Position numbers and translations under genes: made by a program. A stretch of DNA of 59,723 nucleotides from an uncultured Reyranella sp. (GTDB lineage Bacteria > Pseudomonadota > Alphaproteobacteria > Reyranellales > Reyranellaceae), in assembly GCA_937919085.1 (NCBI GenBank), contig CALFRN010000348.1, positions 1-59,723 of the forward strand, read 5' to 3'. Position 1 is the first letter of the stretch. Each line of letters opens with the position of its first letter. Positions 1,368 to 4,877 of the stretch are shown piece by piece. The notes under the pieces were generated by a model. That model was not told where the DNA came from, ran no database searches, and saw only the letters and a program-made list of their open reading frames with translations.

Positions 1368-2282
1368 TCACGCCGCCGCGGGATGGGCTTCGCGGCCGCG
1401 GTCCCGCCGGAGGCGGCGCCAGTCGAGGCCGATGTCGAGCACGGCGGCGCTGTGGGTGAGCCAGCCGGCCGAGATGAGATCGACGCCGCTGGCGGCAATG
1501 GCCGGCGCGGTCGCGGGCGTGATGCGGCCCGACGCCTCGGCAACCGCGCGGCCGGCGATGCGGCGCACCGCCTCGGCCAGCACCTCGGGGCCCATGTTGT
1601 CGAGCAGCACGGCATCGATGCCCTCGGCCAGCGCCTGGTCGAGCTGGTCGAGCGAATCGACCTCGACCTCGATCTTCACCAGATGGCCGGTGCCGGCGCG
1701 GGCGGCGCGGATGGCCGGCGCCACGCCGCCCGCCGCGGCAACGTGGTTGTCCTTGATCAGCACGGCATCGTCGAGCCCAAAGCGGTGATTGACGCCGCCC
1801 CCGGCACGCACGGCGTATTTCTGCAAGGCTCGCAGGCCGGGCATGGTCTTGCGCGTGCAGCAGATGCGCGACTTGTAGCCCTGCACCGCCGCCACCAGCG
1901 TCGCCGTCGCGGTGGCGACGCCGCTCAGGTGACCGAGGAAATTGAGCGCCACCCGCTCGGCCGTCAGGATGCCGCGCGCCGGGCCCGACAGGGTGGCGAT
2001 GCGGTCGCCCGGTCCGACATGGGTGCCGTCGGGCCGGTCGATCGCGATCTCGATGGCGGGATCGACGAGGCGAAACGCCAGCGCCGCGGCATCGAGGCCG
2101 GCCACGATGCCGGGCTGGCGGGCGACCAGCGCCGTCTCGGCCCAGGCTTCGGCCGGCACGATGGCGTCGGTGGTGAGATCGCCGGCGCGGCCGAGGTCTT
2201 CCAGCAGGGCGGCACGCACCGGCGGCTCGATCATGATCAGCGGCAGCGGGGCCAGCGGGGCCAGGGATCCGGAAAGGGACAT
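1368..2282 (-). CDS. nadC: quinolinate phosphoribosyltransferase NadC
   Basis: 304 residues. NadC converts quinolinate and PRPP to nicotinate mononucleotide, CO2 and PPi in de novo NAD synthesis. The sequence shows the family hallmarks: an N-terminal [16 protein letters not shown] segment, [13 protein letters not shown], the PRPP/quinolinate-binding [37 protein letters not shown] stretch, and VLLDNMGPE with SGRIT near the C-terminus. Length is normal. It starts 11 bases after the nadA stop, so nadA-nadC is a two-gene operon. No nadB lies between or beside them, so the iminoaspartate step must be encoded elsewhere, by nadB or an aspartate dehydrogenase. Confidence 0.97.
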   Translation of the reverse strand: [304 protein letters not shown]

Positions 2283-2293
2283 CGCCGCCTCCC

Positions 2294-3268
2294 CTAGCCG
2301 ACCGCCAGCATGCGCTCGACCGCACGTCGCGCGGGCGCGGCGACGGCGGGATCGATCGTCACCTCGTGACTCATCGTCTCGAGCGCGCGGCGGATCCGGG
2401 GCAGCGTGATGCGCTTCATGTGCGGGCAGAGATTGCACGGCCGCACGAACTCGATCTCGGGATGGAGTGCGGCGATATTGTCGCTCATCGAGCATTCGGT
2501 CATCAGCACGACGCGTGCCGGCCGCTCGCGCGCGACATAGTCGGCCATCGCCGCCGTGGAGCCGGCGAAATCGGCCTCGGCCACGACCTCGGGCGGGCAT
2601 TCGGGATGGGCCAGCACGACAACGCCGGGATGGCCGGCGCGCACCTGGCGTACGTCGGCGGCGGAGAAGCGCTCGTGGACCTCGCAGTGACCGGCCCAGG
2701 TGAGGACCTCGACGTCGGTTTCGCGGGCGATGTTCCGCGCCAGGTATTCGTCGGGCAGCATGATGACCCTGGGCACGCCCAGGCTCTCGACGATCTTCTT
2801 GGCATTGCCCGAGGTGCAGCAGATGTCGCTCTCGGCCTTCACCGCCGCCGAGGTGTTGACGTAGGTGACGATCGGCACGCCGGGCCAGCGCTGGCGCAGC
2901 AGCCGCACGTCCTCGACCGTGATCGATTCGGCCAGCGAGCAGCCGGCCCTGAGATCGGGGATCAGCACGGTGCGCGAGGGGTTCAGGAGCTTGGCGGTCT
3001 CGGCCATGAAGTGCACGCCGGCCAGCACGATCACCTCGGCATCGGTCTTCATCGCCTCGCGGGCGAGCGCCAGGCTGTCGCCGACGATGTCGGCGACGCC
3101 GTGGAAGATCTCCGGCGTCTGGTAGTTGTGCGCCAGGATCACGGCGTTCCTGTCGCGTTTCAGCGCCAGGATGGCATCGACGTCGGGCGCGAACTCGGAC
3201 CATTCGGCCGGCAGGATCACCGACCTGACCTTTTCATAGAGCGCGGCGGCTTGGCTGGAAACGGTCAT
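2294..3268 (-). CDS. nadA: quinolinate synthase NadA
   Basis: 324 residues. NadA condenses iminoaspartate with dihydroxyacetone phosphate to quinolinate using a [4Fe-4S] cluster. Three Cys match the usual cluster ligands: Cys110 in AGCSLAES, Cys195 in GHCEVH and Cys281 in NLCPHMK. AHNYQ (residues 46-50) and [21 protein letters not shown] are further family motifs. Start at ATG 3268. It heads the nadA-nadC operon. Two similar 19-base palindromic sites lie 12-57 bases upstream of the start codon and are the probable point of control, most likely by the Nudix-related regulator encoded at 3933-4877. Confidence 0.97.
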
Positions 3269-3279
3269 GGGGCACCTTG

Positions 3280-3298
3280 TATGCTCACTATGAGCATT
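3280..3298. promoter_or_regulatory. palindromic operator 1 upstream of nadA
   Basis: A perfect 7-base inverted repeat, ATGCTCA-CTA-TGAGCAT (3281-3297), lies 12 bases before the nadA start codon. Its position fits a repressor site. It shares 13 of 19 bases with the second site 27 bases away, centre to centre. The NadQ-type regulators of alphaproteobacteria are known to control nad operons through palindromes; the assignment to the local regulator is inference. Confidence 0.65.
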
Positions 3299-3306
3299 TG
3301 TATCTT

Positions 3307-3325
3307 TATGCTATGAATGAGTATA
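3307..3325. promoter_or_regulatory. palindromic operator 2 upstream of nadA (degenerate)
   Basis: TATGCTATGAATGAGTATA is an imperfect palindrome, TATGCT facing GAGTATA. It matches operator 1 at 13 of 19 positions, including TATGCT and ATGAG. Centres are 27 bases apart, between two and three helical turns, so a bound dimer pair could interact. The sequence is far more A+T-rich than the genes around it, as expected for a promoter-operator region shared by nadA and the divergent gene at 3389. Confidence 0.5.
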
Positions 3326-3388
3326 ATGGTCGTCAAGCCCCTTTTCGTGGTTTCGACAGGCGACGGACGGTCGACTAAAAAGGCGGGC

Positions 3389-3907
3389 ATGCGCAGCATC
3401 TTCAGTATCGCCATCGGCCTGGCGGCCCTCACCGGGGCCGCGGGTGCGTCGGCCCAGACGGCGTCCTTCACCGATCCCCAGGCCTATTGCCGGGCGGTCG
3501 GCACGATCGACGCACCCGACCGGCGCTTCACCGGCCACGGCGTTCCCGACTGGATCCAGGCAACGTTCCTCTCGCCGCAGGAGATCGCCGCCATCAAGGC
3601 CGGCCGGCGGCCGGACTACGGCATCGCCTGGCGCTGCGTGCAGGGCGAAGTGCTGGCCTGCCAGAACGCCCAGTCGCCGTCGTGCATGAAGCCCGACACC
3701 GACCGCACGCCGACCGCCGCGATGCGCGACTTCTGCCGCGACGACAAGGCTGCCTTGCCGGTGATCCCGCGGGCGGTCACCGGCACGGCACGCATGCTGG
3801 CCTACGACTGGGTGTGCCGCGGCGCGGCGCCCGCGATCGCCAGGGAAACGCCGCTCGACGCACAGGGTTTCGTCGCCGCCGACTGGAAGCGCGTCGGCCC
3901 GAAGTAG
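3389..3907 (+). CDS. secreted protein of unknown function
   Basis: 172 residues from ATG 3389. The first 23 residues, MRSIFSIAIGLAALTGAAGA then SAQ, form a standard Sec signal peptide, which is why this start is preferred over the upstream in-frame ATG at 3317 that would bury it. The mature part has seven Cys (for example YCRA, WRCVQGEVLACQ, PSCMK, DFCRDD, WVCRG), suggesting disulphides in the periplasm. No catalytic motif is recognised. It is divergent from nadA, so the operators at 3280-3325 could also affect it. Its 3' end lies in a 13-base tandem duplication that repeats the stop codon. Confidence 0.7.
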   Translation: MRSIFSIAIGLAALTGAAGASAQTASFTDPQAYCRAVGTIDAPDRRFTGHGVPDWIQATFLSPQEIAAIKAGRRPDYGIAWRCVQGEVLACQNAQSPSCMKPDTDRTPTAAMRDFCRDDKAALPVIPRAVTGTARMLAYDWVCRGAAPAIARETPLDAQGFVAADWKRVGPK

Positions 3908-3932: not shown

Positions 3933-4877
3933 TCAGGTGGAGCGCGAGAGCGGCAGCTTGCTGCCGGCGACCGCGCGCTCGAGCAGGATCTCGCGGCGGA
4001 AACGGAAGAGCTTGGCCGGACGGCCACCGGTTTCGGCCGAAACGCCGCCGGTCTCCTCGACCAGCCCCTGCTGCTCGATCACGCGGCGGAAATTCTGCTT
4101 GTGCAACGGCCGGCCGGCCAGGGCTTCGACCGCGCGCTGGAGCTGGCCCAGCGTGAAGTCGGGCGGCATCAGCTCGAACACCACGGGCCGGTATTTGATC
4201 TTGGCGCGTAGCCGCGCGATCCCGGTGGCCAGGATGCGGCGGTGGTCATAGTGCATCGCCGCGCCCGGCAGGACGTCGGCCTGACCCTTGCGGCGGCCGG
4301 CCTCGGCGACGAGCCCCGCCTCGTAGAGCAGCTCGTAGCGCTGCAGCACCAGGTCCTCGTTCCAGGTGGCCTCGGCGAAATTGATCTCGACCCGCTGGCG
4401 ACGCTCGCGTCGCGCCGCGGTGTCGGCCGCGGCATCGACCCAGCGCCGCAGCCGCGGCAGAACCTGGCGGACCACAATTGCCGGCAGACCGCCACGCCGG
4501 TCCTCCCACGGAAGATAGCGGTACCAGCTCTGCCAGCCGGGCTCGTGCTGGCCGGCCTCGGCACGCTCGCGCGTGAGACCGAGGTAGGAGATCGAGACGA
4601 TGCGCAGGCCGGACGCGGCCCCGGCGCGCGAACGATCGGCGAAGGTATAGAGCTGCTCGACATAGCCCAGCGGATGATGGGTATGGCGCTCGACCCAGGC
4701 GCGCAGGCCCACCTGCAGCGTCGGATGATCGCCCTCGAAGGGCCCCGACGGCAGCAGCAAACCGTCATCAAGGGTAAGCACCTGCGGCTCGTCGTCGATC
4801 AGCGCGACGAGCACGGCGTTCAGTTCGATTGAAACGGCACGGGAGCGATTGGCGACAGACGGCATATCGGGTGCCAT
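3933..4877 (-). CDS. Nudix-related transcriptional regulator (NrtR/NadQ type)
   Basis: 314 residues from ATG 4877 (ATG 4865 is an alternative). Residues about 15-140 resemble a Nudix fold (ELNAVLVALIDDEPQVLTL, then LPSGPFEGDHPTLQVGLRAWV and GYVEQLYTFADRSR), but the catalytic GX5EX7REUXEE box is degraded, as in regulator versions. Residues about 225-297 are a winged helix typical of NrtR: FTLGQLQRAVEALAGRPLHK, NFRRVIEQQGLVEETG, then GRPAKLFRF. NrtR-like and NadQ-like proteins sense NAD metabolites and repress NAD genes. One small gene separates it from nadA-nadC, whose promoter carries two matching palindromes. Naming it NadQ is likely but not proven; no matching palindrome is visible before its own start. 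Confidence 0.8.
   Translation of the reverse strand: MAPDMPSVANRSRAVSIELNAVLVALIDDEPQVLTLDDGLLLPSGPFEGDHPTLQVGLRAWVERHTHHPLGYVEQLYTFADRSRAGAASGLRIVSISYLGLTRERAEAGQHEPGWQSWYRYLPWEDRRGGLPAIVVRQVLPRLRRWVDAAADTAARRERRQRVEINFAEATWNEDLVLQRYELLYEAGLVAEAGRRKGQADVLPGAAMHYDHRRILATGIARLRAKIKYRPVVFELMPPDFTLGQLQRAVEALAGRPLHKQNFRRVIEQQGLVEETGGVSAETGGRPAKLFRFRREILLERAVAGSKLPLSRST

What the first reader, a model, noticed from the sequence alone, without database searches (positions are those of the whole stretch)
3280..3325. Two related palindromes before nadA near a Nudix-type regulator gene
A perfect ATGCTCA-N3-TGAGCAT and a degenerate second copy share 13 of 19 bases, centres 27 apart. A regulator with degraded Nudix box and NrtR-like winged helix is encoded at 3933-4877. 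Together they suggest a local NAD-responsive circuit, possibly also touching the divergent secreted protein.
Basis: partly seen in the sequence, partly recalled or inferred. Interest (0 to 1): 0.55.

Follow-up and report, generated by a model that had tools for sequence, protein, structure and literature searches.

The report
NadQ operator pair before nadA
The two palindromes are very probably landing sites for a known bacterial regulator, NadQ, encoded next door, that controls genes for making the coenzyme NAD; this is an ordinary member of a described circuit, with the small extra that the less perfect copy seems to double as part of the promoter.

Summary
Site 1 (3281-3297) matches the core ATRCTCANNNTGAGYAT of the published NadQ consensus without mismatch; site 2 (3308-3324) has two mismatches. 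The gene at 3933-4877 encodes NadQ (COG4111): E 1.8e-107 to the solved NadQ chain 7q91, with an NrtR-type winged helix. In 56 sampled genomes (own plus 55 of its genus or family), nadA, nadC and nadQ occur in the same 40 and are missing from the same 16. All 40 nadA genes have at least two such sites upstream, with up to 3 mismatches. In named genomes, 51 of 52 nadQ-linked nadA loci have at least one with up to 2. The second copy is degenerate for a likely reason: its last six bases look like the nadA -10 element (TAGCAT), with a TTGAC -35 17 bp upstream. The secreted-protein idea is not supported. The effector may be ATP rather than NAD, by the title of a 2022 paper I could not read. Verdict: new member of a known kind, low interest.

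The parts
3281..3297 (.). NadQ operator, nadA-proximal copy (site 1), about +5 to +21 of the inferred nadA transcript
   Evidence: 0 mismatches to ATRCTCANNNTGAGYAT; published consensus in PMC5343134; only such place in the own genome
3308..3324 (.). NadQ operator, distal copy (site 2); its nadA-side end is the inferred -10 hexamer of nadA
   Evidence: 2 mismatches; a distal copy with up to 3 mismatches in 40 of 40 genomes
3331..3336 (-). inferred -35 hexamer of nadA, TTGACG
   Evidence: at least 5 of 6 bases of TTGACA at 16-18 bp from the hexamer in 36 of 40 genomes
3308..3313 (-). inferred -10 hexamer of nadA, TAGCAT, inside site 2
   Evidence: TAGCAT or TAGTAT in 35 of 40, CAGCAT 4, AAGCAT 1
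2294..3268 (-). nadA, quinolinate synthase
   Evidence: Pfam NadA E 1.1e-111; NF006878 and TIGR00550 over cut-off
1368..2282 (-). nadC, quinolinate phosphoribosyltransferase, directly after nadA
   Evidence: TIGR00078 over cut-off
3933..4877 (-). nadQ, the regulator (COG4111 family)
   Evidence: 7q91 NadQ E 1.8e-107, 175 identities over residues 17-312; NrtR_WHD at 233-293
3389..3907 (+). divergent small protein, apparently secreted (read by eye); probably not part of the circuit
   Evidence: no Pfam or NCBIfam match up to E 0.1; homologue found at 9 of 78 nadQ loci

Best explanation
A tandem operator of the NadQ regulator controls the nadA-nadC operon. NadQ, made from the gene upstream, binds both palindromes. 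Site 2 covers the spacer and -10 of the nadA promoter and site 1 covers the start of the transcript, so bound NadQ would block RNA polymerase. When the effector (ATP, according to the title of the 2022 paper) signals a need for NAD, NadQ lets go and quinolinate synthesis rises. Shown by computation: family identity, consensus match, co-occurrence, conservation of the two sites and of the -35/-10 geometry in the family. Inferred: binding, repression, effector and the direction of its action, operon transcription, transcription start.
For: Published consensus and regulon content (PMC5343134 passages). Regulator matches solved NadQ at E 1.8e-107 and has NrtR_WHD. nadA, nadC and nadQ share presence and absence in 56 of 56 genomes: 40 with all three, 16 with none (Fisher P 2.4e-14, which ignores relatedness). 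Two sites with up to 3 mismatches before nadA in 40 of 40. Among 52 named loci with nadA, 85 sites with up to 2 mismatches in 21,320 bp around the nadA start against 1 in 313,764 bp elsewhere in the same loci. -35 of at least 5 of 6 bases in 36 of 40 against 0.4% of control positions.
Against: No binding or expression data for this organism. One of 52 named loci (L143) has no site with at most 2 mismatches. In deeper relatives with 54-68 bp spacing the -35 is often not found: over all 46 two-site loci 32 reach 5 of 6. 26 of 78 nadQ loci do not hold nadA in the fetched stretch (up to 3 kb each side, less at contig ends) and 24 of these show no site, so the test was not made there. Places with at most one mismatch also occur in 9 of 16 genomes without nadQ. 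PMC5343134 states that the N-terminal domain of NadQ is not similar to that of NrtR, while the 2022 title calls it Nudix-like; I did not test the fold.
Confidence: 0.95

Rival explanations
1. The palindromes are sites for another regulator (for example NrtR or AraR type) and the neighbouring gene is only a neighbour.
For: The winged helix also hits AraR_C (E 2.5e-07); AraR (5bs6) and MutT/nudix chains (3gz5, which I recall is an NrtR; 2fml) are weaker hits.
Against: Those best matches cover the DNA-binding end only; the match over residues 17-312 is to NadQ. The sites fit the NadQ consensus and accompany nadA together with nadQ in 40 of 40 genomes.
Confidence: 0.02
2. The operators also control the divergent secreted protein in a shared bidirectional promoter.
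For: They lie about 65-108 bp before its start codon; a TTGTAT-N17-TATAAT can be read on its strand in the window (read by eye); a homologue is found at 9 of 78 nadQ loci, between nadQ and nadA.
Against: The TATAAT reads CATAA- in the other 10 aligned sequences; the promoter scan did not list it; operators sit at the same place in relatives without the gene.
Confidence: 0.1
3. The perfect palindrome is a transcription terminator or a chance inverted repeat.
For: The scan lists 3281-3297 as terminator-like on the + strand; 10 perfect 7-3-7 repeats occur in the window.
Against: The place lies in the upstream region of nadA with no recognised + strand gene ending there; the sequence, not just the symmetry, is conserved before nadA in relatives.
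Confidence: 0.01

Closest known systems
NadQ regulon (COG4111; Leyn et al. 2016, PMC5343134)
   Same: Regulator family, consensus site, nadABC genes as targets, nadQ clustered with nadA
   Different: Here the target appears to be nadA-nadC without nadB; the passages I saw do not mention tandem operators or an operator inside the -10
NrtR (Nudix-related regulator of NAD metabolism)
   Same: Homologous winged helix (PF21906), NAD genes as targets
   Different: NrtR has a recognisable N-terminal Nudix domain (PMC6800001 passage), absent here from the Pfam scan; the match over residues 17-312 is to NadQ; NtrR model far under its cut-off
NadR of Enterobacteriales
   Same: Controls nadA
   Different: A three-domain protein with an N-terminal HTH and two enzyme domains (PMC12421817 passage)

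Membership tests
NadQ (COG4111) | Homology over nearly the full length to a characterised NadQ | tested here: met
   7q91, residues 17-312 of 314, E 1.8e-107, 175 identities
NadQ (COG4111) | C-terminal NrtR-type winged helix | tested here: met
   PF21906 79.6 bits, cut-off 27
NadQ (COG4111) | Operator ttATRCTCannntGAGYATaa before de novo NAD genes | tested here: met
NadQ (COG4111) | Gene often clustered with nadA/B/C | tested here: met
   window; relatives:
NadQ (COG4111) | Effector binding (ATP) and repression | not testable with these tools
   Only the title of the 2022 paper seen; the paper is not held
NrtR | NtrR equivalog model over cut-off | tested here: not met
   57.2 bits against cut-off 400, residues 208-294 only
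NrtR | Recognisable N-terminal Nudix domain | tested here: not met
   No Nudix Pfam hit up to E 0.1; Nudix box letters replaced

The most novel reading that the evidence does not exclude
The degenerate operator copy is a dual element. Its nadA-side half-site has been bent from TGAGYAT to NTAGYAT so that it serves as the -10 of nadA, and NadQ control therefore rests on a tandem operator in which one copy is the promoter itself. The distance to the second operator has changed between about 21-22 and 26-27 bp (roughly two and two and a half helical turns) more than once within the family, so contact between the two bound dimers on one DNA face may not be required.
Probability: 0.6. Interest if true: 0.3.

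Novelty: new member of a known kind. Interest (0 to 1): 0.15.

Why it matters
It places this lineage (Reyranella by its named relatives) in the NadQ regulon, with joint presence or loss of nadA, nadC and nadQ in the 56 genomes sampled, and gives a concrete promoter model (operator inside the -10 plus one at the transcript start) that can be tested with a gel shift and a reporter. Beyond that it is routine.

Tried and rejected
A wider regulon was sought and not found, but not exhaustively. The own genome has one zero-mismatch place (window) and one one-mismatch place (C46:4735). The latter lies inside a 279-aa ORF, and the same letters recur in genomes without NadQ (G006, G007, G022, G023, G034, whose list of places was cut). 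Places with two or more mismatches in the own genome were not followed one by one. Aspartate dehydrogenase (PF01958) was considered as a NadQ-controlled stand-in for the missing nadB: no site with at most 2 mismatches in the 31 loci looked at (two from the own genome and 29, a part of the matches). The family is present in 56 of 56 genomes, with or without nadA, so its presence is not specific. Autoregulation of nadQ: no site with up to 3 mismatches upstream of it in the window. Chance palindrome, terminator and the secreted-protein target are treated under the rivals. A search for papers with both Reyranella and nadA gave three listings, none of which I opened.

No structure prediction or fold search was run, because a solved NadQ already matches over almost the full length.

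One search was a faulty first run: loci on the minus strand had not been turned, so it found no sites in 15 of 40 genomes. One search replaces it and one search is not used.

Full report
What is there. Site 1, ATGCTCACTATGAGCAT at 3281-3297, is a perfect 7-3-7 palindrome. Site 2, ATGCTATGAATGAGTAT at 3308-3324, shares 13 of 19 bases in register with it, centres 27 apart. By symmetry alone site 1 would be unremarkable, since the window has 10 perfect 7-3-7 repeats. Both sites lie in the 120 bp between nadA (2294-3268, minus) and a small divergent gene (3389-3907, plus). The stretch 3269-3340 is 43% GC in a 67% GC window.

Identity of the regulator. The product of 3933-4877 matches the solved chain 7q91 (named NADQ transcription factor) over residues 17-312, E 1.8e-107, with 175 identities. 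Three other chains, one AraR and two named MutT/nudix, match best in the C-terminal part only. Pfam gives NrtR_WHD at 233-293, AraR_C over the same part, and no Nudix domain. The NtrR model of NCBIfam is reached at 57 bits against a cut-off of 400. In an alignment of 77 NadQ rows (the window and 76 loci) the Nudix-box region of the window keeps G45, R59 and E63 but has H at 51, A at 60, R at 64 and T at 66 (the Nudix motif is recalled), so hydrolysis is unlikely (inference).

Known circuit. The passages I saw of PMC5343134 describe NadQ as a predicted regulator of NAD genes in alphaproteobacteria and several beta- and gammaproteobacteria, with consensus ttATRCTCannntGAGYATaa, a C-terminal domain homologous to that of NrtR, an N-terminal domain unlike that of NrtR, frequent clustering with nadABC, and an effector unknown at that time. 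Two later papers (passages only) cite Minazzato et al. 2022, whose title calls NadQ Nudix-like and ATP-responsive. That paper is not held, so the effector rests on a title.

Statistics. Site 1 has no mismatch and site 2 two mismatches to ATRCTCANNNTGAGYAT. In the window, two matches with up to 3 mismatches is not above chance by number (2.62 expected); the strength lies in the zero-mismatch match, its place and its conservation. In the own genome (4.9 Mb, 525 contigs) it is the only zero-mismatch place. In the family sample a place with at most one mismatch somewhere in the genome is found in 48 of 56 genomes: 39 of 40 with nadQ and 9 of 16 without. So it is the position before nadA, not mere presence in the genome, that carries the evidence.

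Relatives. I asked for up to 120 genomes of the order, at least 90% complete; 56 were examined, all of the own family by the tool's labels, including the own. nadA is present in 40, nadQ in 40 and nadC in 40 (E at most 1e-40), the same 40; the other 16 lack all three. One of the 16, G036, is a single contig at 99% completeness, so assembly gaps are an unlikely cause there. Upstream of all 40 nadA genes there are at least two sites with up to 3 mismatches; 38 of 40 have one with at most one mismatch, and 7 have three sites. Controls in the same script, up to 3 mismatches: 87 sites upstream, 4 inside nadA, mean 1.22 (largest 4) in 50 Markov shuffles. In a second collection, with organism names, 78 nadQ loci were fetched; by their titles many of the nearest relatives are Reyranella, the nearest at 93% identity. 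52 of the 78 hold nadA in the fetched stretch; 51 of these have a site with at most 2 mismatches within 350 bp of its start and 26 have two or more. Elsewhere in these 52 loci there is 1 site in 313,764 bp. Of the 26 loci without nadA, 24 have no such site and 2 have (L120 two, L134 one). The two sets share genomes, so they are not independent.

Why the second copy is degenerate. In the 40 genomes the last hexamer of the distal copy is TAGCAT (23), TAGTAT (12), CAGCAT (4) or AAGCAT (1). A hexamer with at least 5 of 6 bases of TTGACA lies 16-18 bp upstream in 36 of 40 genomes, at 17 bp in 35 of these and 18 in one, against 0.4% of control positions. The promoter scan lists TTGACG-N17-TAGCAT at 3336-3308 as its only hit in 3200-3450. 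So the distal operator contains most of the spacer and the -10 of nadA, and its departure from TGAGYAT is what a -10 needs (inference). With more permissive calls in the named set (distal copy with up to 4 mismatches), 46 of 52 loci have two sites, 5 one and 1 none; 32 of 46 have the -35 with at least 5 of 6 bases, against 2 of 46 for the proximal site; 3 of 46 distal copies keep GAGCAT. In loci with 54-68 bp spacing the -35 is often not seen, so there the model is weaker.

Spacing. Distances between the two nadA-nearest sites in the 40 genomes are 27 (11), 26 (10), 22 (7), 21 (7), and 23, 24, 25, 54 and 56 (one each). On a NadA tree the four spacing classes need at least 7 changes, 3 being the least possible. 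Shifts of about half a turn have thus probably happened more than once, though 14 of 37 inner branches are drawn open for weak support.

The divergent gene. Its homologue is at 9 of 78 nadQ loci, all with NadQ at least 80% identical. The operators are equally placed where it is absent. The TATAAT that could serve it is found in the window only; the other ten aligned sequences read CATAA-. I see no support for including it in the circuit.

Conclusion. I did not see that detail in the passages I read among the papers listed by my searches (most listed papers were not opened), and the main structural paper was not readable, so I do not claim that it is unpublished.

Noticed in passing
window 1368-3268: nadC follows nadA directly and no nadB over the family cut-off is found in the own genome (the best hit, L012, looks like SdhA by my own reading of the DNA). 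nadB over cut-off is found in 20 of 56 genomes, all with nadA (that search scored only 22 of the candidates per genome, so absences elsewhere are provisional), including the closest relative G044, where it lies between nadA and nadC.
   Followed up: partly
family sample, 16 of 56 genomes (for example G036, G002, G052): nadA, nadC and nadQ are all absent together, including in near-complete genomes; these may depend on salvage of NAD precursors, which was not tested.
   Followed up: partly
L024, L028, L034, L040, L043, L045, L047 (upstream of nadA): A third NadQ-like site lies 31-32 bp further upstream in seven genomes that group together on the NadA tree.
   Followed up: partly
window 3389-3907: Small protein with a signal-peptide-like start (read by eye) and no Pfam or NCBIfam match, lying between nadQ and nadA in the window and at 9 of 78 nadQ loci.
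   Followed up: partly
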